Assembly (NCBI RefSeq): GCF_003751085.1 | Contig: NZ_RJJY01000002.1 | Location: 1,178,001 to 1,242,000 of the forward strand | Source of the DNA: Micromonospora sp. Llam0 | Lineage (GTDB): Bacteria; Actinomycetota; Actinomycetes; Mycobacteriales; Micromonosporaceae | Direction of reading: 5' to 3' | Length of the DNA stretch: 64,000 nucleotides | In this document: one piece after another, positions 10,208 through 19,802 of the stretch | Layout: each line of letters begins with the position of its first letter | How positions within the stretch are numbered: position 1 is the stretch's first letter | The notes under the pieces: model-generated | The model's database searches: none | Seen by the model: the letters and a program-made list of their open reading frames with translations, nothing else | Told to the model about the DNA's origin: nothing | Position numbers and translations under genes: made by a program

Positions 10208-11398
10208 ATGCGGGCAGGACCCAGCCAGGAGGAGATCCGCCGGCACAACCTCGGCGCGTTGCTGCGGCACGTGCACGTGCACGGCGCCACCTCACGGGCC
10301 GAACTGACCACCACGCTGGGGCTCAACCGCAGCACCATCGGCGCGCTCACCGCCGACCTGGCCGCCGCCGGCCTGGTCAGCGAGGGCGGCGCCCGGGAAA
10401 CCGGCCGGGCCGGACGACCGTCGCTGGTCGTCCGGCCCGCGTCCGAGCGGGTGTACGCGTACGCGCTCAGCATCGAGGTCGACCGGCTACGGGCCGCCCG
10501 GGTCGGGCTCGGTGGCCGGATCCTCGACATGCGCACCGCCGAACGGCCGCGCGGGACGCTGGCCGCCGAGGCGGTCGGCCCGCTCACCGGCTTCGTCAAG
10601 GAGCTGCACCAGGCGGTGCCGGCCGGCTCGGTCTGCGTCGGCAGCGGCGTCGCGGTCTGCGGCATGGTCCGCCGCGACGACGGCATGGTCCGGCTCGGGC
10701 CGACCATGGGCTGGGTCGACGAGCCGCTGGGCGCCGCCCTGGCCGAGGCGCTCGGCGACGACCGGGGCGTCCTGGTCGGCAACGTCTCCGACGTGTGTGC
10801 GCTGGCCGAACACACCCGGGGCGCGGCGGTCGGCTGCGACCACGTCATCTACCTGTACGGCGACGTCGGCATCGGCGCCGGGATCATCGCCGGTGGCCGG
10901 CGGGTCACCGGACACGGCGGGTACGGCGGCGAGGTCGGCCACATGGTGGTGCACCCCGGCGGCCGGCCCTGCCTGTGCGGATCCCGGGGCTGCTGGGAGA
11001 CCGAGATCGGCGAACACGCGCTGATCCAGGCGGCCGGCCGCAGCGGGGCCGTCGTCGGCCGCGAAGCGGTGCTCGCCGTGGTGGACGCGGCCGACCGGGG
11101 CGACAGCCAGGCCCAGGCCGCGGTCCGCCAGGTCGGCAACTGGCTCGGCTTCGGCGTGGCCAACCTGGTCAACATCTTCAACCCGGAGACGGTGATCTTC
11201 GGCGGTACGCTGCGGGACGTCTACCTGGCGGCGGCCGCGCACGTGCGCAGTCGGCTCAACTCCAACGGGTTACCGGCCTGCCGGGAACACGTCCGGCTGC
11301 GTACCCCGAAACTCGGCGACGACGCCCCACTGATCGGCGCCGCCGAACTCGCCTTCGAGCAGCTGCTCGCCGACCCGCTCGACGCGGTCGCCGGCTGA
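10208..11398 (+). CDS. ROK-family transcriptional regulator (XylR-like)
   Basis: A 396-residue protein. An N-terminal winged helix (HNLGALLRHVHVHGATSRAELTTTLGLNRSTIGALTADL) is fused to a sugar-kinase-fold ROK domain (GDVGIGAGIIAGG, GEVGHMVVHPGG). The ROK zinc motif CLCGSRGCWETEIG is complete. It most likely represses xylFGH and responds to the imported sugar. Its last 37 codons lie in a 191-bp segment that recurs at 19612-19802 on the far side of the accessory island; the gene itself is intact. Confidence 0.9.
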   Translation: MRAGPSQEEIRRHNLGALLRHVHVHGATSRAELTTTLGLNRSTIGALTADLAAAGLVSEGGARETGRAGRPSLVVRPASERVYAYALSIEVDRLRAARVGLGGRILDMRTAERPRGTLAAEAVGPLTGFVKELHQAVPAGSVCVGSGVAVCGMVRRDDGMVRLGPTMGWVDEPLGAALAEALGDDRGVLVGNVSDVCALAEHTRGAAVGCDHVIYLYGDVGIGAGIIAGGRRVTGHGGYGGEVGHMVVHPGGRPCLCGSRGCWETEIGEHALIQAAGRSGAVVGREAVLAVVDAADRGDSQAQAAVRQVGNWLGFGVANLVNIFNPETVIFGGTLRDVYLAAAAHVRSRLNSNGLPACREHVRLRTPKLGDDAPLIGAAELAFEQLLADPLDAVAG

Positions 11399-11478
11399 CC
11401 CGAGACCCTGCCAGGTGCGCCACAGATCGGCGTACGGACCGTCGGCGGCGACCAGCTCGTCGTGCGAGCCGAACTCGG
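11288..11478. repeat. Left copy of the 191-bp island-flanking direct repeat
   Basis: Matches 19612-19802 at a constant offset of 8324 with six mismatches, all within the first ~105 bases; the last ~85 bases are identical. It holds the 3' end of the ROK gene (stop at 11396-11398) and, on the minus strand, the last ~60 codons of an ABC-exporter gene whose complete copy lies at 19621-21480. Homology breaks off after gaactcgg at 11478, leaving a headless ABC remnant here. Confidence 0.9.
11297..11478 (-). pseudogene. Remnant C-terminus of the ABC exporter gene
   Basis: The minus strand encodes EFGSHDELVAADGPYADLW and onward, the same C-terminal sequence as the ABC exporter at 19621-21480, but with no ATPase core upstream. 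Beyond 11478 the frame continues into unrelated sequence. It is the left-hand leftover of the repeat created when the island came in, and is not expected to be functional. Confidence 0.8.
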
Positions 11479-11660
11479 AGCCCATCGCGTGGAGCGTCAG
11501 GGTCCGGAGGCGCCGACTCCCACACCAACCGCTCCGCCGACGCCGCTCCACCGTCCGCCACCGGTCAACGTCAGCCATGACGATCTCCGGCGGGTGTTCT
11601 GGCATCAGCACGGGTCACCCCCGTGGTTTGACACTCCCCGCCGGCAGGGAGGCATGCGAA
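11479..11660. other. Left island junction, non-coding
   Basis: No supported gene. Around 11629-11655 the bases cactccccgccggcagggag form an imperfect hairpin next to tttgacac. This resembles the terminal hairpins of IS200/IS605-type elements, but no transposase or TnpB gene is attached, so at most this is a remnant. Confidence 0.3.
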
Positions 11661-12110
11661 CTATGACCAGCCGCTGAGTACGAAGGGTGCCCGGTCTCGG
11701 AATGCGCGTACGCAGGCGGCGGTGTACGGGTAGGTGTTGGTCGGCAGCATGTCAGCGGGAAACCATGCGATCTTGGCGCACTTGTGCGGCTCGGCGTTGA
11801 CCGGCTCGCCGTGCCGGCTTTGGTCGAAGGCCACGGCGAAGGCGAGGCCGACGCGGGCGAGGCCGCTGGCGTTGCGGTGGTGCACCGTGGTGACCAGTTG
11901 CGGCTCCGAAGGGCTGAGGCGCACGCCGATCTCCTCACCGGCCTCGCGGACGATGGCGGTGATTGCGTGTTCGCCGTGCTCCAGCTTCCCGGATGGAAGA
12001 TTCCACTGGCCGTCCGCGTAGCCGGTTCCTTCGCGGAGCGCGAGTAAGAGATGGTCGGCGCGGGTGAGTAGGAGCAGCACATCAACCGGGTGCGCAGGGA
12101 GGATGGTCAC
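11661..12110 (-). CDS. NUDIX hydrolase
   Basis: 149 residues with a complete NUDIX box: G-K-L-E-H-G-E, seven residues, then REAGEEIGV, matching Gx5Ex7REuxEExGu. These enzymes cleave nucleoside diphosphates linked to another group X. Substrate unknown. NLPSGKLEHGEH before the box suggests a MutT/ADP-ribose-type fold. The GTG at 12110 overlaps the end of the upstream kinase gene by 29 bases, so it is the last gene of the radical SAM operon and probably acts on the same nucleotide chemistry (inference). Confidence 0.88.
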   Translation of the reverse strand: MTILPAHPVDVLLLLTRADHLLLALREGTGYADGQWNLPSGKLEHGEHAITAIVREAGEEIGVRLSPSEPQLVTTVHHRNASGLARVGLAFAVAFDQSRHGEPVNAEPHKCAKIAWFPADMLPTNTYPYTAACVRAFRDRAPFVLSGWS

Positions 12111-12735
12111 GCTGGCCGAGGTTAGCCGGTCGTGCCAGGAAGTAGTGGGTCGACCCCCGCCGGGCGATCCATGCCACGCGGGCGGCGGTGTCGATCCCGG
12201 TGGGCACGTCGGTCAGCGGTAGGTTCACGTCGGCGCAGGTTGCGCGGAGCGCCTCGGCGGTTTCGGCTTGGAGGTGGGCGACCTTGGCTCGCATCGGGTC
12301 GTTGGGATGGTCGAAGCGGTCAGATAGGTAGAAGACCGCGTCGTAGGTGGTAGGTGCCCATGTGCGGCAGAACGTAGCCATCGCGTCGAGTACGGCGGCG
12401 TCAGGGCTGCCGGGTGCGGGGGCGAGGATCATGCGGGCGTAGGCGAGAACGTTGATCACCGTTTTGTCGCAGATGAGGAGTCGTTGATGGCGGGCGGCGC
12501 GCAGCGTCGTGGACAGGTGCGCGGCGAACAGGTCCACTTCGCAGGTCAGGTCGAAGTTGCCCTTGCCGTGAATGACGGTTTCCTCGATGAAGGGGCTTGT
12601 GCGGGCGGGCTCTGCGAGGCAGTCGACGAGCACGCCTTGGTGCCGGTAGTGGGCGGTCAGCGCGTGGACCAGGGTGCTCTTGCCGGATGCGTGTGTGCCC
12701 TCGATTCCTACAAGCACGCAGGTTCGTGCGGTCAT
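12082..12735 (-). CDS. P-loop nucleoside/nucleotide kinase-like protein
   Basis: 217 residues. The N-terminus CVLVGIEGTHASGKST is a Walker A loop (residues 13-20) of the thymidylate/deoxynucleoside-kinase type. It is followed by LAEPARTSPFIEE, a DR-like LLICDKTVINVLAY substrate segment, and a lid-like region rich in Arg/Asp (LSDRFDHPNDPMRAK). The real start is ATG 12735, which overlaps the upstream stop as ATGA; the upstream extension of the frame is not protein-like. Likely a small-molecule or nucleotide kinase; substrate unknown. It is second to last in the island operon. Confidence 0.75.
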   Translation of the reverse strand: MTARTCVLVGIEGTHASGKSTLVHALTAHYRHQGVLVDCLAEPARTSPFIEETVIHGKGNFDLTCEVDLFAAHLSTTLRAARHQRLLICDKTVINVLAYARMILAPAPGSPDAAVLDAMATFCRTWAPTTYDAVFYLSDRFDHPNDPMRAKVAHLQAETAEALRATCADVNLPLTDVPTGIDTAARVAWIARRGSTHYFLARPANLGQRDHPPCAPG

Positions 12736-13523
12736 CGCGTTTGCCGCCCTGGCGGGAGTAGTGCCTGGAAGGTGGGGTGGTCCAGCCAGGCGACGCGGCC
12801 GGCCCATTGCTCGGCGAGGTTGGCGTTGACGTTCAACGGCGATCCCCAGGTGACGTATCCGGCCGCGCGGAGCGCGACGTAGGCGGTAGAGAGGCTGTGT
12901 CGCAGGTTGAGCACGGTGATGCGTTCCCGTGCTTCGGTGTCGCCATGTTCCAACCAGTCGCGGTGTAGGGCTGTCATCGACTTTCGTGCCAGTTCCGGTT
13001 GGGTCACGTCGAGGTCGAGTTCGCCGCACACGTCGACAAGGCGGCGGGAGGTGCCGGTGAGCACCTGGCTGGTGTCGAATCGGGTGTCGAGCACTCGTTG
13101 TGCGGGGTCACTGCGTCGCTCCTGCCATGCCCGTCTCGCGGCAGTCAACGCGGTCGGTGTGGAATTTCCGGCGTTGGCCATGAGCACCGCTAGGTCGCTG
13201 CATAGCTGGTGCCCGACGATCAGGTCTGCGCCGCCCAATGCTGCACCGATGTCGGTCGCTGCGGCCTCCACCAGTTCCAGCCGCTCCTGGTCGTGGCCTA
13301 GGTAGACGCTCGTCGACCAGAACGGCAGACCACCGGTGAGCTGTGCTGGCTGGTTTGTCGTGGGAACGGTGAGCCAAAGGATCGAGTAGCAGAACGCCTG
13401 GTTGCCGTCCTTGATTCGGTAGTTCTTGCTCCACTCGACATCCATCGAGGCTACGAGTCGAGTGCCCGCCGGGCGGCTCGGTGTGCTGCCTGGCCCACCG
13501 ACGTCGCTGATCATCTGCACCAT
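12732..13523 (-). CDS. DnaQ/RNase H-like fold protein, putative 3'-5' exonuclease relative
   Basis: 263 residues with motifs arranged like a DEDD exonuclease: motif I ASMDVEWSKN (D28, E30), motif II LIVGHQLCSDLAVL (D110), a VLDTRFDTS strand near 146, and a late RHSLSTAYVAL helix near 209 where exonucleases carry His-x4-Asp. The final Asp is not obvious, so catalysis is uncertain. The start is ATG 13523, with ggag eight bases upstream; GTG 13532 is the alternative. It overlaps the kinase gene (ATGA). The next upstream gene (13620-14399) looks like a diverged paralogue. No specific function is claimed. Confidence 0.6.
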   Translation of the reverse strand: MVQMISDVGGPGSTPSRPAGTRLVASMDVEWSKNYRIKDGNQAFCYSILWLTVPTTNQPAQLTGGLPFWSTSVYLGHDQERLELVEAAATDIGAALGGADLIVGHQLCSDLAVLMANAGNSTPTALTAARRAWQERRSDPAQRVLDTRFDTSQVLTGTSRRLVDVCGELDLDVTQPELARKSMTALHRDWLEHGDTEARERITVLNLRHSLSTAYVALRAAGYVTWGSPLNVNANLAEQWAGRVAWLDHPTFQALLPPGRQTR

Positions 13524-13619
13524 CTTTACCACTCCACATGGTCATGCTCATGCTTGCCGGCCGGTGGACGTCGCCCGTCCCGCCTCGGTACGGGCGACGG
13601 CCACCGACCCTAGCGCCGT

Positions 13620-14399
13620 TCAGTCTGGAGCAGAGGTGAGCACGGCGGCCGTGTTGGTATCCGTTCCGACGATGCGGCGGGTGGCGCAACAGGCGGTGTC
13701 GGTGTCGGTGGTGAAGACATCCCACGCTGCCCGGTCGATGGTCTCGGTCACACGAGAGGTGCCCTCCCAGGTGTAGCGATCGGTGTGCACGGCGGCGGTC
13801 AGACCGACTGCCAGGCACCGGGCCAGGGCGGATCGGGCGACTCCGGACGCGCACGTCGGGCAGGTGGGCACCGGGACCGACACGGGTTCCAGGTGCATGT
13901 CCAGTTCCGCTCCGGTCGCGGCGGCTTCCGCAGCGGTGTCGATCATGACTGCGACGCCGCGTTGCTTGACCGTCCGGTTCGCCCAGGCGGAAAGCACCTC
14001 GGCCGCTCCGCGCAGCGGCACCGTTGAGAGGGCGTTCATGCGGGTCAGGTCATCGCTGAGGCGGTGTCCGGCGAGGATGACGCCGAGGCGGCGGGCACCG
14101 GTCAGCTCCCGGTCGGTGAGCCGGAGCAGGTCCGGCACCTCACCCGGTTCCTCGATGACGGCTGTCCGGAACCCGACGGACAGCGTGTCGTCGGCGATGT
14201 GCTGGGCGGTGCCGTGTTTGCGGACCCGCAGGTACACCGCCGCCGACGCGACCGGTAGCCCCGCCTCTTCGGGGCGGCCGGACCATTCAAGGGTGCAGGC
14301 CGTCAGCATGTCCCAGTGCCGGCCGAAGGGTCGTTGCTCGGCGCCGAACGGCGTCTGCGGCCATTGCAGGTTGGTGTACTCACGCACCGACGTGCCCAT
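13620..14399 (-). CDS. Diverged paralogue of the DnaQ-like protein, unknown function
   Basis: 259 residues. It aligns by eye with the neighbouring protein: CTLEWSGR (residues 35-42) against MDVEWSKN, ILAGHRLSDDLTRM against IVGHQLCSDLAVLM, VMIDTAAEA against VLDTRFDTS, and a C-terminal ...TAAV...YTWEG against ...TAYV...YVTWGS. The first catalytic Asp is replaced (T for D), so it is probably inactive. It has C180-P-T-C183 and a further Cys, a possible metal site absent from the paralogue. The start at 14399 overlaps the radical SAM stop by 20 bases. Confidence 0.55.
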   Translation of the reverse strand: MGTSVREYTNLQWPQTPFGAEQRPFGRHWDMLTACTLEWSGRPEEAGLPVASAAVYLRVRKHGTAQHIADDTLSVGFRTAVIEEPGEVPDLLRLTDRELTGARRLGVILAGHRLSDDLTRMNALSTVPLRGAAEVLSAWANRTVKQRGVAVMIDTAAEAAATGAELDMHLEPVSVPVPTCPTCASGVARSALARCLAVGLTAAVHTDRYTWEGTSRVTETIDRAAWDVFTTDTDTACCATRRIVGTDTNTAAVLTSAPD

Positions 14400-15381
14400 C
14401 GGAGGCGGGGGCGCCCGCGTTGGCAGCGGTGCGGATGCTGGCACCGAGGTACTTGGCGAAGTGGTTGCGCTTGTACCGGTAGCGTTTCCAGATCTCCGTC
14501 ACCGGTTCGGTGAGGACGTTGCCGAGAGGTTCCAGCAGGTCCGGTGCGTCGTACACCGGCCAGGCGCTGGCCTTGCCGGTGACCTCCACGAGGATCATGT
14601 GACCCTCGGTTTCCGGGGTCCAACACGTCATGCGCAGCGCCGGCCGCCAGTCGTGGGTCGAGCGTGCCTCCATGAGCCGGTCGAACGTCCGGCCCGCCTC
14701 GTCGATACTGATGAACTCGTTGGCCTCCAGGCCGAGGGCGTTGCCCTTGCGCAGCGGCAGGATCAGTTTCAGCTTGCCCGCTCCGATCACATCCGCGATC
14801 TGGTAGGTGAACGGCAACGCGTGCAGGGTCGACCGGTACACCACGGCTGACAGCGACAGCGGCAATCCAGCGTCCAGAAACGCGCGCACACCGGACATCA
14901 CCTGGTCGTAGTCGCCGCGTACCCGGTTGGTGGTCGCGCGTGGTCCCTCCAACCCGACGTTGACGAACGCCACCTTGTCCACCATCGACTTGGCGTGCTG
15001 CAACCCCCGGGTGGCATTCGTCGGGATACCGAGGATGAAGTCGGGGCTGTACATGTCCACGATGTCGCCGAAGTCTCTGCGCAGCAACGGCTCCCCGCCG
15101 GACAGGAATACCCGGCCTACCCCGGCAAGGTTCGAGCGGATCGTGTCCAACTCGGGCAAGGTCGGGTCGGGAAGCTGCAACGTCTCCGAGCAGAATGAGC
15201 AGTCGAAGTTGCACCGCTTGGTGATCTGGAGGATGACCGACAGCGGCACCGTCGCCGCCTCGGCAAGCTCCTCGATGCTTGCCGCGCCAGTCACGGTGAA
15301 GTGGTGTCCGGCGGTGAAGGCCACCGGCCCGGCGACCTGCGGCGGCGCGGGCGGGACAGCGGGCATACCCAGCATGGTCAT
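14380..15381 (-). CDS. Radical SAM enzyme with twitch/SPASM-like C-terminus
   Basis: 333 residues. The cluster motif is RCNFDCSFC (C57, C61, C64), followed by RVFLSGGEPLLRRDF (the SAM-binding GGE near 95), typical of the PqqE/AlbA/MoaA branch. The C-terminus (ALRMTCWTPETEGHMILV...LGNVLTEPVTEIWKRY) has the layout of a SPASM or twitch domain but keeps only one obvious Cys, so the auxiliary cluster is probably lost. The start at 15381 has aagggaga upstream; the longer frame does not. It is the first gene of a five-gene operon (radical SAM, two DnaQ-like, kinase, NUDIX). Substrate unknown. Confidence 0.85.
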   Translation of the reverse strand: MTMLGMPAVPPAPPQVAGPVAFTAGHHFTVTGAASIEELAEAATVPLSVILQITKRCNFDCSFCSETLQLPDPTLPELDTIRSNLAGVGRVFLSGGEPLLRRDFGDIVDMYSPDFILGIPTNATRGLQHAKSMVDKVAFVNVGLEGPRATTNRVRGDYDQVMSGVRAFLDAGLPLSLSAVVYRSTLHALPFTYQIADVIGAGKLKLILPLRKGNALGLEANEFISIDEAGRTFDRLMEARSTHDWRPALRMTCWTPETEGHMILVEVTGKASAWPVYDAPDLLEPLGNVLTEPVTEIWKRYRYKRNHFAKYLGASIRTAANAGAPASDGHVGA

Positions 15382-15618
15382 GGTCAATGTCTCCCTTGCA
15401 GGGGTCGGGATCTGGTCCGACCGGACCGTTATGGCATGGGTGAAAGTCGATGGTTGAGTCGTAGATGTCGCCACGCACGAGTCAGTTCGACTAGCCGGGA
15501 GGGCCTCGTTCCCGAGGTGTCGTCCGTCCCGTCTTGTGAGGCACGACGAGCCGATTCCGGGTGGCCACCGCTGCTTTGACGGGTGACTGGACGGGTGCGG
15601 GGCGGTGATGGCTGGCCA
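15382..15618. promoter_or_regulatory. Upstream region of the radical SAM operon
   Basis: A 237-base gap between two minus-strand genes. Apart from the aagggaga ribosome site next to the radical SAM start, no convincing promoter boxes or repeats were seen. It presumably carries the operon promoter. Confidence 0.35.
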
Positions 15619-15984
15619 TCAGTGCTCCCGCTCGTAGAGCAAGCCCTCGGCATCCGGCGACAGATCGCGCCAACCGACCGAGTAGCCGAAAGGCTCTGTC
15701 CGCGCCTGTATCAGCTCGGGGTTATTCGAATGAGCGGGATCGGGGTGCCGGGGCTCGTTGGCCGCCGATGCGGCTGGTGCAGACAGGGCGCTTCGTGTGT
15801 CGTACCAAAGTGGGTCGTCCCCGGCTGCTGCGATGACCGAGGCCGCGAAGGACCGGACTTCGCATGGCGTCGGACCACCGCATCTCGCACACGTTCTAGC
15901 TGCGGTGACCTGGTGGCGTTGATAGAGCTCCACGGCGGTGGCGTGCGTCGGGGTGCCGCGTAAGGTGGGAATCGGACGCTGCAT
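15619..15984 (-). CDS. Small Cys-motif protein of unknown function
   Basis: 121 residues, unrecognised. It contains TCARCGGPTPCEVRSFAASVI, a CxxC...C pattern that could bind a metal. The gene looks real because the ATG at 15984 is preceded by ggaaggagg at good spacing. A shorter protein at 17650-17901 has a similar GLCVECRVLGPCSVHEAAARV segment, so the two belong to the same family of actinobacterial small proteins usually found near HTH regulators. It is probably at the end of the regulator operon starting at 17465. Confidence 0.65.
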   Translation of the reverse strand: MQRPIPTLRGTPTHATAVELYQRHQVTAARTCARCGGPTPCEVRSFAASVIAAAGDDPLWYDTRSALSAPAASAANEPRHPDPAHSNNPELIQARTEPFGYSVGWRDLSPDAEGLLYEREH

Positions 15985-16020
15985 ACCGGCCTCCTTCCTA
16001 ACTCCGGCCGTTGGTGGTGA

Positions 16021-16350
16021 TCAGGAGGCCGGACGTACCCCTACCTGTCGATTCGTCAATGCGGTGGCTGGCCCGTCCACCGTGACTCGCCCGTCACGTT
16101 GGCGAGCAGGGCCGTCAGGGTTAGCGAGAAGGAGCTGGAAGCGGGCCTTGGAGTTGGTGTCGGCAAGGGTGAGGGCTTGGTCGAGCACAGACTGTGCCGC
16201 GAGCGTCGGTGTTGCGGGGGTGGTGCGGTGCTCCCATGCGGTAACGGCAGCTACGGCCAATCCGAGGTGCTCGGCGAACGCTCGCACGCTCATGCGCAGC
16301 GCCTCGCGCAACGCGCGGATCTCCCGTGCGGTCCACCGACCGACGACCAC
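16021..16350 (-). CDS. Small XRE-type helix-turn-helix regulator
   Basis: 109 residues. The N-terminal half is a clear HTH: TAREIRALREALRMSVRAFAEHLGLAVAAVTAWEHR. The remainder is a short tail without a ligand domain. GTG start at 16350 with gaggag upstream. It starts 15 bases after the preceding HTH gene ends, so three regulators lie in one minus-strand unit. Target unknown; self-control and control of the radical SAM operon are plausible. Confidence 0.75.
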   Translation of the reverse strand: MVVGRWTAREIRALREALRMSVRAFAEHLGLAVAAVTAWEHRTTPATPTLAAQSVLDQALTLADTNSKARFQLLLANPDGPARQRDGRVTVDGPATALTNRQVGVRPAS

Positions 16351-16365
16351 TGGCCCGCACTCCTC

Positions 16366-16794
16366 TCACGATGCCGGGGATGTGGTGCCGGCAGGAGTGA
16401 ATGGTGCCGGCTGTGTGGTGGGAAGCTGGCGTTCCAGGTCGCGCTCCAGTTCGGTCTGGGCGTGGAAGTCGCGCATGAGTGCGTGTACCTGGTCGTACAC
16501 CGCCAGGAGCGCTCCATGCGCGCCGAGAGTCGTGTCCGCGTTCAGCCAGAATCGGCGAGTGGTGTTGTCGCGGCCGACTTCGACGTTGGCGATCTGGCTG
16601 CGGGAGTAGCGAATGAGCGTGGCAAGGTCGACTTGCCTTAACCCGGCTGCGACGCGCCAGAAGGCCAGGTGCCGGCCGAGGTCCTTGCGCGCGTCGGCTA
16701 CCTGACCGGGTGTGATGCCGCCCGTAGGGCTGACGCGGCGCGGCGTGGTCGGAACACGCTGATGCTGCGGCCGAGGGTGCGGTGCACGGGTCAT
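16366..16794 (-). CDS. XRE-type helix-turn-helix regulator
   Basis: 142 residues. A Pro/Arg-rich leader is followed by an HTH (LGRHLAFWRVAAGLRQVDLATLIRYSRSQIANVEVGR) and an amphipathic helix (LAVYDQVHALMRDFHAQTELERDLERQL) that could dimerise. The ATG at 16794 overlaps the previous stop as ATGA. Long alternative frames through this stretch are not protein-like. Confidence 0.75.
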   Translation of the reverse strand: MTRAPHPRPQHQRVPTTPRRVSPTGGITPGQVADARKDLGRHLAFWRVAAGLRQVDLATLIRYSRSQIANVEVGRDNTTRRFWLNADTTLGAHGALLAVYDQVHALMRDFHAQTELERDLERQLPTTQPAPFTPAGTTSPAS

Positions 16795-17465
16795 CACGAC
16801 CACCGCCCCTGGGCGATCGGGTACACCCGGGCTTCGCCCGCCACCGTCGGCACACCAGCAACGACCGGGGCGAGTCTTACGGGCTCGACATCGGCGGGGC
16901 TGATCAGCACCTGGATCGGTCCGGCCACAATCGCGACATGGCCGGGGGGCACCGCGTCGTGGTGCACCACCGTGACAGCTGTGTCCTCGTGCATGCTGAG
17001 GTGCACCACCGCTGTCTTCGCGTGCACGGTTACCGGTTCGTGGCCGTTCGACGCTGAAGGGGTGGCGGCTGGAGAGTGGGCGATGGTCAGCGGCGTCGCT
17101 GGACGGCCGTGTGATACCGCTGCCTGCGACGGACCCACGGGTGGGAGTGGCTCGGCCGGTGAGACGTCGGGATCGTTGGTGTGGCCCTGGATGATGAAGA
17201 AGCCGAGTTCGGCGTCCGTGGCCTTGCCCAACACCGCACGCAGCGCTGTGCGGTAGTGCGCGGACGGCCAACGGGTCTGGCCGCGTTCCAGATTGCCGAT
17301 GTAGTGGCCCGCGACGGCGGAGCGTCGCCCGGCGTGCTCATACAGGTAGGTGATAACCGCGTCGGCCAACTCCTGGCGTGACAACGGCCGACCCGAGCCC
17401 GAAGGAGACCGCAGCGCCAGTCGTGCTGCCCGCAGCAACTCGTTCGGTCCCGGTTGATAAGCCAT
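16794..17465 (-). CDS. Helix-turn-helix regulator with His-rich sensor-like domain
   Basis: 223 residues. MAYQPGPNELLRAARLALRS...RPLSRQELADAVITYLYEH...VAGHYIGNLERGQTRWPS is an HTH of the kind actinomycetes place near small-molecule operons. The C-terminal part has many His residues (VHAKTAVVHLSMHEDTAVTVVHHD), which may bind metal. ATG 17465; its ribosome site is weak. First gene of the regulator trio. Confidence 0.7.
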   Translation of the reverse strand: MAYQPGPNELLRAARLALRSPSGSGRPLSRQELADAVITYLYEHAGRRSAVAGHYIGNLERGQTRWPSAHYRTALRAVLGKATDAELGFFIIQGHTNDPDVSPAEPLPPVGPSQAAVSHGRPATPLTIAHSPAATPSASNGHEPVTVHAKTAVVHLSMHEDTAVTVVHHDAVPPGHVAIVAGPIQVLISPADVEPVRLAPVVAGVPTVAGEARVYPIAQGRWS

Positions 17466-17649
17466 GAAACAAGATCCGTTCCTTGATCGGAGATCGTCGG
17501 GGACAGAGCGGCGAGGAGATGGCGAGTAGTTCGACGTACCTGGCGACCACGCGGGTGCGTTTCTCAGCCATGACCTACCCGGCGGATCCTGTATGTGTGC
17601 TGGGTGTAGCCCGCTATCTCGGGGCTCGGCAGCCGTCAAACTATGCACC

Positions 17650-17901
17650 TCAGCTCGCCGCCCGCGTTGATAGCCAACTGAATTCATCCTGCTTGTCGCC
17701 CATCAGTTCCGGCCGCGTCGCGCCAGGTCGCCGCCGAGGGAGCCGTGCCGAAAGCAAGAACACCCTGGCCGCCGCTTCGTGCACTGAGCACGGGCCGAGC
17801 ACCCGACACTCCACGCACAGCCCGTCACTACTGGATACCGCATGCCTGTCAAGTGTTGCTTGCGCCTGATCGATCTGGTTTCCTCCGTGGTAGGTGCCCA
17901 T
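17650..17901 (-). CDS. Small Cys-motif protein of unknown function
   Basis: 83 residues, unrecognised. GLCVECRVLGPCSVHEAAARV parallels the CARCGGPTPCEVR segment of the 15619-15984 protein. The tail is basic. An overlapping frame (17703-17942) is not convincing. No strong ribosome site precedes the ATG at 17901, so the start is uncertain. Confidence 0.5.
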   Translation of the reverse strand: MGTYHGGNQIDQAQATLDRHAVSSSDGLCVECRVLGPCSVHEAAARVFLLSARLPRRRPGATRPELMGDKQDEFSWLSTRAAS

Positions 17902-17992
17902 GCCCGTCCGTTCTTGCCAGACGGCTCCCGTCCAGCAACCAAAGTCTGGTGGCTTTTAGAAACGATGGTCGTGCTATTTTTTTCGGAGGTTG

Positions 17993-18136
17993 CTACAGGT
18001 TCTTCCTGACGTTCTTCGCAATGGCGTCAGTGGTGGTCGCGCCGCACTCCGGGCACCAACGAGACTTGATCTTGAATGAGAGTAGTCCGGCCAGGTAGCT
18101 GGCCACTGCAGTGCCTGCAACTGTGGCAATAAGCAT
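17993..18136 (-). CDS. 47-residue membrane protein with a zinc-ribbon-like CPEC motif
   Basis: MLIATVAGTAVASYLAGLL is a single hydrophobic helix, followed by basic residues, CPECG and a short basic tail ending KNVRKNL. The ATG at 18136 is preceded by ggggag at nine bases. It is divergent from the XRE-DUF5753 gene. Function unknown; a small membrane-tethered regulator or toxin-like peptide would fit the size (inference). Confidence 0.5.
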   Translation of the reverse strand: MLIATVAGTAVASYLAGLLSFKIKSRWCPECGATTTDAIAKNVRKNL

Positions 18137-18413
18137 CTTTATTGTCTCCCCGTCCCGTTGCGACGCGCCTCGGGCGGCTAACGAGTCGAGGCCGTGCCAA
18201 CGGGTTCGACGCTGCCACCTTGGGTCAAGGCGGCTGCGGGAGACACCGACTCCGGCGCGGACTTTCGTCGAACTGGGCATGTTCCCGACCTCCCTGGCTA
18301 CGACGAGGGGCAACGCAGGAATAATCCCACGAGGCACCTGCGTCAGGCAACTGTCTGGAGCTAGTGTTTGGAGAAGTGTCTTGATCGTTGACCTTGGTCG
18401 TAGACTGTCCGCC
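18137..18413. promoter_or_regulatory. Divergent region upstream of the XRE-DUF5753 gene
   Basis: 277 bases between the 47-residue protein and the XRE gene. It is less GC-rich than the flanks. A good ribosome site, ggagaag at 18370-18376, leads to an in-frame TTG at 18381. No other element stands out. Confidence 0.4.
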
Positions 18414-19253
18414 GTGGCAAGTCCTACTGCTCGACGGAAGCTGGGCATCGAACTCAAGGGGCTGCGCGAGGCAGCCGGCCTGAACATCGATCAGGCTGCC
18501 AGCGCGGCTGGCATCTCCGACTCGCACCTGAGCCGTATCGAACGTGGTCGGGTTGGTGTTCGACCGTTGACCCTCAAGGCGTTGCTCCAGAGCTACGGTG
18601 CAGACGCCGAGGTCACGGAACGGCTGGCCCGGACCGCCGCCGATACGACCAAGCGCGGTGACCGGGGATGGTGGCAGCCGTACGCTGCGGCGATCTCCGA
18701 GAAGTACACGAGCCTGATCGCCTTCGAGAGCGAAGCGACCTCGATCAAGGCGTTCGGTTCGATGGTCGTGCCCGGCCTGCTCCAGACCGAGGAGTACGCC
18801 CGAGCGCTACTGCAACGCGGACCTGTCCGACTGAAGGTCGACGAGATCGACACGCGTGTCGCGGTACGCACGTCACGCCAGGCCATCCTTGATCAGAGCG
18901 ACCCGCCGAGCACGTGGATCATCCTTGACGAAGGAGTCATCCGCCGGATGGTCGGTGGCGCGGAGGTCATGCGTCGCCAGATCCTCCACCTGGTGGACAT
19001 CGCAGCGCGGCCCAACATCGACCTCCAGGTGATCCCATACTCCGCAGGTGCCCACGCCGGCACCCTCGGACCGCTCGTGATCCTTGGCTTTCCAGAGGGT
19101 GACGACGTCGTGTACTGCGAGACCTACGCTGGGGACCTTTACCCCGAGGCGGTAGCATCGTATGGCGACGTATTCAACAGGTTGGCGCAGGATGCGTTGT
19201 CTACGGACAGATCGACCGAATTGCTACGAACCGCCGCAGAGGGGATAAAGTGA
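18414..19253 (+). CDS. XRE-DUF5753 regulator of an XRE/DUF397 pair
   Basis: About 279 residues. The HTH is KLGIELKGLREAAGLNIDQAASAAGISDSHLSRIERGR, followed by the DUF5753 domain (YTSLIAFESEATSIKAFGSMVVPGLLQTEEYARALL, RTSRQAIL, VIPYSAGAHAGTLGPLVILGF). The GTG at 18414 gives the usual family length. A TTG at 18381 with a better ribosome site would add 11 residues. The stop overlaps the DUF397 gene start (GTGA). Such pairs are numerous in filamentous actinomycetes and have been described as development regulators or toxin-antitoxin-like modules. Confidence 0.88.
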   Translation: MASPTARRKLGIELKGLREAAGLNIDQAASAAGISDSHLSRIERGRVGVRPLTLKALLQSYGADAEVTERLARTAADTTKRGDRGWWQPYAAAISEKYTSLIAFESEATSIKAFGSMVVPGLLQTEEYARALLQRGPVRLKVDEIDTRVAVRTSRQAILDQSDPPSTWIILDEGVIRRMVGGAEVMRRQILHLVDIAARPNIDLQVIPYSAGAHAGTLGPLVILGFPEGDDVVYCETYAGDLYPEAVASYGDVFNRLAQDALSTDRSTELLRTAAEGIK

Positions 19254-19444
19254 ACGGACTGACGCAACACTGGAAGAAGTCAACCAAGAGCAACGGCAGC
19301 GATAGCTGCGTCGAGACTCGAGCGCATAGCGGCGGGGTCCAGGTCCGAGACTCCAAGGACCGCAGCGGTCCGACGCTCTCGTTCGACCGCGAGAGCTACG
19401 GCAACTTCCTCGCCGGGCTAATTACGGGGCGCTTGGAATCCTGA
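19250..19444 (+). CDS. DUF397 small protein
   Basis: 64 residues with the DUF397 pattern W.KS..S....CVE...... VRDSKD..GP.LSF....... F. It is coupled to the XRE-DUF5753 gene by a 4-base overlap and followed at once by a rho-independent terminator. It belongs to the partner family of the XRE regulator; the paired protein probably binds or sequesters that regulator. Confidence 0.9.
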   Translation: MNGLTQHWKKSTKSNGSDSCVETRAHSGGVQVRDSKDRSGPTLSFDRESYGNFLAGLITGRLES

Positions 19445-19468
19445 CCTGACCAGCACGAGAAGCCGTGG

Positions 19469-19499
19469 GCGACCTCCCTCAGGGGTCGCTGTTGTTTTT
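19469..19499 (+). terminator. Rho-independent terminator of the XRE-DUF397 unit
   Basis: Stem gcgacc (19469-19474) with ggtcgc (19484-19489), then tgttgttttt. It sits 25 bases after the DUF397 stop. A second small hairpin, cgcgcc-tgtg-ggcgcg, follows at 19520-19535. Confidence 0.8.
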
Positions 19500-19611
19500 C
19501 GGCGGCCCCTCTTGGGTTTCGCGCCTGTGGGCGCGGAATCAGTCGACGCCCGGCCGCTCTCGGGGGCTGTTTCAACTCCGCCCGCCCTGCCTCACTGACC
19601 CTCGTCACAAG

Positions 19612-19802
19612 CACGTCCGGCTACGTACCCCGAAACTCAGCGACGACGCGCCGCTGATCGGCGCTGCCGAACTCGCCTTCGAGCAGCTGCTCGCCGACCC
19701 GCTCGACGCGGTGGCCGGCTGACCCGAGACCCTGCCAGGTGCGCCACAGATCGGCGTACGGACCGTCGGCGGCGACCAGCTCGTCGTGCGAGCCGAACTC
19801 GG
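19612..19802. repeat. Right copy of the 191-bp island-flanking direct repeat
   Basis: Homologous to 11288-11478. It encodes on the plus strand a headless ROK C-terminus (VRLRTPKLSDDAPLIGAAEL; one Gly to Ser change against the left copy) and on the minus strand the genuine C-terminus of the ABC exporter. The junction with island DNA is at about 19611. Confidence 0.9.

What the first reader, a model, noticed from the sequence alone, without database searches (positions are those of the whole stretch)
11661..15381. Five-gene radical SAM / DnaQ-like pair / P-loop kinase / NUDIX module of unknown function
The genes overlap or nearly touch and share one direction, so they form one operon. The combination (radical SAM enzyme lacking most auxiliary-cluster cysteines, two exonuclease-fold proteins, a thymidylate-kinase-like P-loop protein, a NUDIX hydrolase) suggests chemistry on a nucleotide or nucleoside: modification, phosphorylation, and clean-up. 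Prokaryotic viperins, which make antiviral nucleotides, are also often placed beside nucleotide kinases, but this enzyme is not viperin-like in its GGEPLL and C-terminal regions. A defence role or a small nucleoside-type metabolite pathway are both open. Linked HTH regulators support a self-contained system.
Basis: inference. Interest (0 to 1): 0.8.

Follow-up and report, generated by a model that had tools for sequence, protein, structure and literature searches.

The report
Mobile radical-SAM nucleotide-chemistry operon
This is a five-gene cassette, found in phages and mobile-looking DNA of soil actinobacteria, whose enzymes look set up to make an unusual nucleotide inside the cell, possibly to fight other phages or microbes, and which we could not match to any described system.

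Summary
Five minus-strand genes (11661-15381) encode a radical SAM enzyme, two paralogous DnaQ-fold proteins, a TMP-kinase-like P-loop protein and an intact Nudix hydrolase. All five are in the same order in 12 of 24 close loci; eight more (Frankiaceae) lack only the second DnaQ gene. Structure models confirm the exonuclease fold, but the catalytic sites are incomplete: DnaQB keeps three of four acids in 66 of 66 rows, DnaQA lacks the first Asp in 55 of 55. The operon is mobile. Here it lies in an 8.3-kb low-GC island absent from 6 of 6 other same-genus genomes; complete copies are in Streptomyces phage Gilgamesh and 5 IMG/VR viral contigs. In that phage lineage the site is a cargo slot; relatives carry a graspetide cluster, a lanthipeptide cluster, or other operons joining radical SAM (or a radical-SAM-like protein), nucleotide kinase and Nudix. 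A sister radical SAM clade has nucleotide kinases and a HhH-GPD-like protein instead. Best reading: synthesis of an intracellular modified nucleotide, viperin-like in logic but not a viperin. Substrate, product and phenotype are unknown; nothing here shows defence.

The parts
14380..15381 (-). Radical SAM enzyme, 333 aa, CNFDCSFC motif, three invariant Cys, SPASM-like C-terminus without its cysteines, signature NHxxKYLGxSI
   Evidence: Pfam Radical_SAM 4.5e-15; 23-row alignment; protein P0188 of 333 aa
13620..14387 (-). DnaQA: DnaQ/RNase H-fold protein lacking the first ExoI Asp; N-tail NLxWPxTPFGAxxRPF conserved but of low model confidence
12732..13523 (-). DnaQB: DnaQ-fold paralogue keeping D31, E33, D113 but with T, A or S where the fourth acid is expected
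12082..12735 (-). KIN: TMP-kinase-like P-loop (AAA_28) protein with GTxAxGK[ST]T, EPAR and DKT motifs
   Evidence: invariant columns in 20 rows
11661..12110 (-). NUD: Nudix hydrolase with intact Nudix box and an EPxKC signature
   Evidence: Pfam NUDIX 4.8e-15; invariant G41, E47, R55, E56, E59, E60, E107, P108, K110, C111 in 20 rows
11288..11478 (+). Left direct repeat (touching 3' ends of the ROK and ABC genes)
   Evidence: 191 bp, 97% identical to the right copy (203 bp at 95%)
19612..19802 (+). Right direct repeat
11491..19611 (.). Island holding the operon and regulators, GC 66.0% against 71.8% and 72.8% outside
   Evidence: empty site in 6 of 6 other same-genus genomes
15619..17901 (-). 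Upstream small zinc-ribbon-like (by eye) and HTH genes; accessory, not conserved with the operon

Best explanation
The operon is a mobile biosynthetic module that makes a modified nucleotide acting inside the cell. Proposed steps, all inferred: the radical SAM enzyme generates the 5'-deoxyadenosyl radical and modifies a nucleoside or nucleotide; the TMP-kinase-like protein phosphorylates substrate or product; the Nudix hydrolase cleaves the triphosphate form, either as the last tailoring step or to protect the host pool; the DnaQA/DnaQB pair, two paralogues of exonuclease fold with incomplete catalytic sites, binds the nucleotide or a nucleic-acid 3' end rather than acting as an ordinary nuclease. 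The likely benefit to the carrier is inhibition of competing phages or elements, in the way viperin products work. Shown here: operon structure, folds, motif integrity or loss, mobility, related operons. Not shown: any reaction, product or phenotype.
For: All five genes in the same order in 12 of 24 loci, 8 further without DnaQB. Intact rSAM, P-loop and Nudix motifs. Sister rSAM clade (hhalign E 1.7e-50 over 299 columns) next to a thymidylate-kinase family protein in 3 of 3 loci and an AAA_28 kinase in 2 of 3, plus a HhH-GPD-like protein (Pfam matches just under cut-off in two, alignment only in the third) and, in one, a MazG-like protein under Pfam's cut-off. Other operons at the same phage site repeat the theme: thymidylate synthase-like + NDK + rSAM-like + DnaQ + AAA_28 kinase + aldo-keto reductase, with a Nudix gene nearby in one (L138, L146), and B12-rSAM + thymidylate kinase + Nudix of the same subfamily as NUD (L148). 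Carried by 6 viral records and, by eye, beside integrative-element genes. No transporter is conserved next to it, which fits an intracellular product. DnaQA evolves fastest: mean pairwise identity over 20 sequences 40.8%, against 59.8-69.7% for the other four.
Against: No substrate evidence; the rSAM core is closer to PqqE (5.9e-13) and MoaA (8.3e-13) than to viperin (4.8e-6). Frankiaceae operons lack DnaQB, L036 lacks KIN, and the Dictyobacter loci have only rSAM and a DnaQB-type gene for certain, so no partner but a DnaQ-type protein is always there. The best PADLOC rSAM hit covers only the core (8.9e-10, residues 80-190); no complete defence system was recognised among 10 cargo proteins tested. 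The phage site also carries peptide natural-product clusters, which favours a metabolite over defence. The MazG and HhH-GPD assignments of the sister loci are weak; one of two MazG-like genes (L073) has no Pfam match. The rSAM tree follows host families broadly.
Confidence: 0.4

Rival explanations
1. A small nucleoside-type natural product cluster: the product is dephosphorylated and leaves the cell to act on competitors, and phages carry it as a weapon for their hosts.
For: The cargo site of the Gilgamesh-type phages holds a graspetide cluster (L145) and, upstream of the same phage gene g44, an FxLD lanthipeptide cluster (L143), with models above NCBIfam cut-offs. Tubercidin biosynthesis uses a radical SAM enzyme and a Nudix hydrolase as last tailoring step, with a carbohydrate-kinase family gene in the cluster (PMC6112128, passages). 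Small putative BGCs, several for class I lanthipeptides, were reported in actinobacterial prophages (PMC10023795, passages).
Against: No transporter is conserved beside the operon and no tubercidin scaffold gene (GTP cyclohydrolase, CPH4 synthase, phosphoribosyltransferase, UbiD) is among the five. The same paper found BGCs in only 0.6% of its analysed genomes (13 of 2112), and no prophage cluster for known antiphage molecules, whereas it reports that prophages contribute significantly to antiviral immunity.
Confidence: 0.22
2. A nucleic-acid modification system: rSAM modifies bases or sugars in DNA or RNA held by the DnaQ-fold (or HhH-GPD-like) subunits, marking or protecting the carrier's genome.
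For: The exonuclease fold and the HhH-GPD fold both bind nucleic acid, and they swap between sister systems. Phage Gilgamesh is annotated with a queuine tRNA-ribosyltransferase and a DNA methylase.
Against: The Nudix and kinase partners point to free nucleotides; the operon also occurs in bacterial contigs with no phage genes that I recognised by eye nearby.
Confidence: 0.15
3. A protein or peptide modification system: rSAM with its SPASM-like tail modifies the conserved N-tail of DnaQA.
For: The core rSAM matches PqqE best (5.9e-13) and the C-terminal region resembles SPASM (recalled) without its cysteines; the DnaQA N-tail is conserved although its model there is of low confidence.
Against: No auxiliary-cluster cysteines; no DnaQA-type protein was found in the Dictyobacter loci; the kinase and Nudix partners are unexplained.
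Confidence: 0.12

Closest known systems
Prokaryotic viperins (pVip)
   Same: Radical SAM enzyme that can sit beside a nucleotide kinase (PADLOC has a model named 'Viperins associated with kinases'); antiviral nucleotide as product logic (viperin's ddhCTP seen in an abstract start, PMC9279394, listing)
   Different: Viperin model 26.0 bits against cut-off 180, core-only match; added DnaQ pair and Nudix
PqqE/MoaA-type radical SAM enzymes
   Same: Closest core similarity (PqqE 5.9e-13; PqqE chain 6c8v 1.4e-11)
   Different: Far below every equivalog cut-off, no auxiliary-cluster cysteines, no precursor peptide found, nucleotide-type partners
Tubercidin cluster (tubA-I)
   Same: Radical SAM, Nudix and kinase genes in a small Streptomyces cluster (PMC6112128, passages)
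   Different: Its GTP cyclohydrolase, CPH4 synthase, phosphoribosyltransferase and UbiD genes are not in the operon; its gene table as seen lists no DnaQ protein
DEDD (DnaQ) exonucleases
   Same: Fold of both middle proteins
   Different: DnaQA lacks the first ExoI Asp in 55 of 55 rows; DnaQB lacks the fourth acid in 66 of 66

Membership tests
Viperin | Full-length match to the viperin family model (NF038283, cut-off 180 bits) | tested here: not met
   26.0 bits, residues 79-174 only
Viperin | CxxxCxxC radical SAM motif | tested here: met
   C88, C92, C95 invariant in 23 rows; shared by radical SAM enzymes in general, so not specific
Viperin | Makes a 3'-deoxy-3',4'-didehydro nucleotide | not testable with these tools
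   needs biochemistry
SPASM radical SAM peptide maturases | Auxiliary Fe-S cluster cysteines in the C-terminal domain | tested here: not met
   no invariant Cys outside the core motif in 23 rows
SPASM radical SAM peptide maturases | Linked precursor peptide | tested here: inconclusive
   no precursor-like ORF at a fixed place among ORFs of 50 aa or more clustered in the window and 23 loci; shorter ORFs not examined
DEDD (DnaQ) exonucleases | DnaQ/RNase H fold | tested here: met
DEDD (DnaQ) exonucleases | Four catalytic acids (motif recalled) | tested here: not met
   DnaQB: D31, E33, D113 in 66 of 66 rows; at the expected ExoIII place RHSxS then T 55, A 8, S 3. DnaQA: first ExoI position never an acid in 55 rows, second E/D in 40 of 55, ExoII D in 46 of 55. 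Placing ExoIII rests on reading the helix against recalled motifs; hhalign to an intact DnaQ gave no usable alignment
Nudix hydrolases | Nudix box GX5EX7REUXEEXGU | tested here: met
dTMP kinase | Equivalog model TIGR00041 (cut-off 83.25 bits) | tested here: not met
   21.1 bits; Walker A present, DKT in place of the recalled DRX motif
Known anti-phage systems in PADLOC | A complete system recognised by its models | tested here: inconclusive
   for the five window proteins only a core-level pVip match, a Nudix PDC-S07 match (4e-11) and weak others; the library dates from 2023

The most novel reading that the evidence does not exclude
A new class of radical SAM system in which a catalytically altered exonuclease-fold heteromer (or, in the sister clade, a HhH-GPD-like protein) holds a nucleotide or a nucleic-acid end while the radical SAM enzyme modifies it, yielding an antiviral or signalling nucleotide that a dedicated kinase activates and a pyrophosphohydrolase detoxifies; phages and integrative elements trade such modules as cargo.
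Probability: 0.2. Interest if true: 0.87.

Novelty: new variant of a known kind. Interest (0 to 1): 0.63.

Why it matters
If right, it extends the viperin idea (a radical enzyme making an antiviral nucleotide) to a different radical SAM clade with built-in activation and clean-up enzymes, and it gives a new type of phage-carried chemistry. The module is small, occurs in a phage isolated on Streptomyces lividans, and can be tested in laboratory Streptomyces. The swap of parts between related operons (DnaQ for a HhH-GPD-like protein, one kinase type for another) gives a way to guess which step each part performs.

Tried and rejected
Viperin membership: rejected on model score. A complete known defence system: none recognised; among 10 cargo proteins PADLOC matched a DnaQ protein of L138 (DEDDh 5.5e-29, PDC-S48 2.9e-19) and a methyltransferase of L143 (mad2 4.9e-11, PDC-S07 1.1e-5). 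Plasmid carriage: no tblastn hit in the plasmid collection at 1e-20. A sixth conserved gene: ORFs of 50 aa or more from the window and 23 loci (L033 left out as near-identical to L032) were clustered; the widest clusters beyond the operon and its antisense frames were DUF5753-type HTH regulators (9 of 24 sources), a mixed methyltransferase cluster (9), another HTH regulator cluster (7) and an ABC-transporter cluster (5), all at varying places, the ABC genes more than 4 kb from the operon. HMUDK/aGPT-PPlase-type phage DNA hypermodification was considered from memory; PHROGs gave only general names (thymidylate kinase, NMN adenylyltransferase, radical SAM, Nudix, MazG) and a paper search had no hit. 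Chloroflexota scan of 151 genomes: besides the two Dictyobacter genomes, two hits at about 1e-25 (L135, L136) that I judged by eye to be mycofactocin-type loci and dropped. IMG/VR scan with the sister clade: 36 loci, all at 20-35% identity over partial stretches, not pursued. Ten of the 34 loci (L045-L054, E 6e-6 or weaker) were dropped as general radical SAM proteins. ARAGORN's tRNA-Ile at 18432-18521 lies in an HTH reading frame and is probably false. Ten paper searches, of which I saw the listings (at most 12 of 96 papers and 12 of 485), and passages of four papers showed no description of this operon; that is absence from those only.
Full report
Observation. Five genes lie head to tail on the minus strand between 15381 and 11661, as described. 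rSAM and DnaQA overlap by 8 bp, DnaQB and KIN by 4 bp, KIN and NUD by 29 bp; between DnaQA and DnaQB there are about 96 bp. Pfam recognises a radical SAM domain, an AAA_28/thymidylate-kinase-like P-loop protein and a Nudix domain; the two middle proteins match nothing in Pfam or NCBIfam above cut-off.

Conservation. One scan of the genome contigs (one genome for each of 84,980 species) with the rSAM protein returned 34 loci; 24 (L021-L044) are close relatives at 56-90% identity and 10 are general radical SAM proteins that I dropped. Of the 24, 12 carry all five genes in the same order and strand (L021-L031, L040); 8 are Frankiaceae loci with rSAM, a DnaQA-type gene, KIN and NUD but no DnaQB (in one, L038, the adjacent NUD is broken; L032 and L033 are nearly the same); L036 lacks KIN; two Dictyobacter loci (Chloroflexota) have rSAM and a DnaQB-type gene only, apart from a distant Nudix match in L043; L044 is decayed. 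Clustering of neighbouring ORFs (window plus 23 loci) found no other gene at a fixed place: the widest other clusters were regulators and mixed methyltransferases in at most 9 of 24 sources. In whole-genome samples the module is patchy. Among 151 genomes (the window's own and relatives) the close rSAM is in G000 and G015 (five genes), in G031 (rSAM in two overlapping matches, then about 1.5 kb, one DnaQ-type gene, KIN, NUD), and as a remnant in G005.

Mobility. In the window the operon lies in an island bounded by a 191-bp direct repeat (97% identical) that duplicates the touching 3' ends of a ROK-family gene and an ABC transporter gene (named by eye). In 6 of 6 other same-genus genomes these two genes are adjacent without the island. 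Island GC is 66.0%, flanks 71.8% and 72.8%. Several relatives lie beside replication-relaxation-like, conjugation-like and integrase-like genes (read by eye). Streptomyces phage Gilgamesh carries all five genes (39-43) downstream of its tyrosine integrase, and an IMG/VR scan confirmed five further viral contigs, each with all five genes in order. In the rSAM tree Gilgamesh pairs with the Streptomyces cahuitamycinicus locus at 100/100; that contig also carries relatives of phage genes g44 and g45, so it is probably a prophage of the same lineage. Broadly the tree follows host families.

A phage cargo site. A search with the Gilgamesh portal protein found 16 viral loci of this lineage; two (L092, L152) carry the operon. 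L152 is the same contig as L094; L091 and L093, found by the rSAM scan, also match the portal. Of the other 14, three (L139, L144, L151) do not cover the site, two (L147, L150) show no cargo I could name, and nine have different cargo upstream of g44: a graspetide cluster with precursor and ATP-grasp enzyme above NCBIfam cut-offs (L145) and an FxLD lanthipeptide cluster (L143, whose left border is not covered); TauD genes (L140, L141; L149 by eye) with a GT4 glycosyltransferase (tested in L140) and a D-Ala-D-Ala-ligase-like gene (L142); and two other nucleotide-type operons. L138 has a Nudix gene, thymidylate synthase-like, NDK, a protein with CxxxCxxC but no Pfam hit that I read as radical SAM-like, a DnaQ protein of the RNase_T family, an AAA_28 kinase and an aldo-keto reductase; L146 has the same seven-gene run from thymidylate synthase on, at 52-84% identity. 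L148 has a B12-binding radical SAM enzyme, a thymidylate kinase and a Nudix hydrolase 35% identical to NUD with the same EPxKC signature; its left border is not covered. PADLOC on ten cargo proteins matched two, no complete system.

Sister clade. Radical SAM proteins at 30-33% identity (hhalign E 1.7e-50 over 299 columns) occur in three unnamed actinobacterial genomes. L058 has AAA_28 kinase, thymidylate kinase, HhH-GPD-like (3.2e-5, 24.7 bits against 26.2), rSAM and a MazG-like protein (0.0033, below Pfam's cut-off; PHROGs 1.1e-4). L057 has the two kinases, a HhH-like gene without a Pfam match and rSAM. L073 has thymidylate kinase (2.4e-20), HhH-GPD-like (9.1e-5, below cut-off) and rSAM, and upstream a gene that looks MazG-like by eye but has no Pfam match. 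The DnaQ pair is thus replaced by another, weakly assigned, DNA-repair-type fold; the pyrophosphohydrolase swap (Nudix for MazG) rests on L058 alone.

Interpretation. Radical chemistry with nucleotide kinases, and mostly with a pyrophosphohydrolase, recurs in independent operons at one phage site and in a sister clade. This is the strongest argument for nucleotide chemistry. Whether the product stays inside (viperin-like defence) or leaves the cell (a nucleoside antibiotic; precedent tubercidin, PMC6112128, passages read) is open. The lack of a conserved transporter leans to an intracellular product; the biosynthetic neighbours at the phage site lean to a metabolite. PMC10023795 (passages) found BGCs in prophages of only 0.6% of genomes, none for known antiphage molecules, and a significant contribution of prophages to antiviral immunity. 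I commit to an intracellular modified nucleotide at 0.40. Paper searches are listed under Tried and rejected. That viperin makes ddhCTP I saw in an abstract start in the listing; the DEDD, SPASM and DRX motifs are recalled.

Noticed in passing
L138:3085-8966 and L146:2396-8187: A second uncharacterised phage-cargo operon: thymidylate synthase-like, NDK, radical SAM-like (SPL-like by eye), DnaQ, AAA_28 kinase, aldo-keto reductase, and one unassigned gene.
   Followed up: partly
L148:61-2686: B12-binding radical SAM enzyme + thymidylate kinase + Nudix hydrolase at the same phage site; the Nudix is 35% identical to the window's NUD.
   Followed up: partly
L057:7604-10193, L058:7703-10761, L073:9057-11780: Sister radical SAM operons with one or two nucleotide kinases and a HhH-GPD-like protein; MazG-like gene in L058, by eye only in L073.
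   Followed up: partly
L145:6033-8484 and L143:750-3920: Graspetide and FxLD lanthipeptide clusters carried by phages of the Gilgamesh lineage.
   Followed up: partly
window 11288-11478 and 19612-19802: Direct repeats made of the 3' ends of two convergent genes flank the island, as if it entered by recombination carrying its own copy of the junction; I recognised no integrase among the ORFs inside (by eye).
   Followed up: partly
L061:8777-9571 and L044:7515-8511: Decayed remnants of the operon in two relatives, a sign that it is dispensable.
   Followed up: no
L021:5635-7745: An ATP-grasp (MvdD-type) gene and a PCMT-type methyltransferase, a graspetide-like pair, just upstream of the regulators and operon.
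   Followed up: partly
window 18432-18521: ARAGORN reports a 90-nt tRNA-Ile inside an HTH gene frame; probably a false positive.
   Followed up: partly
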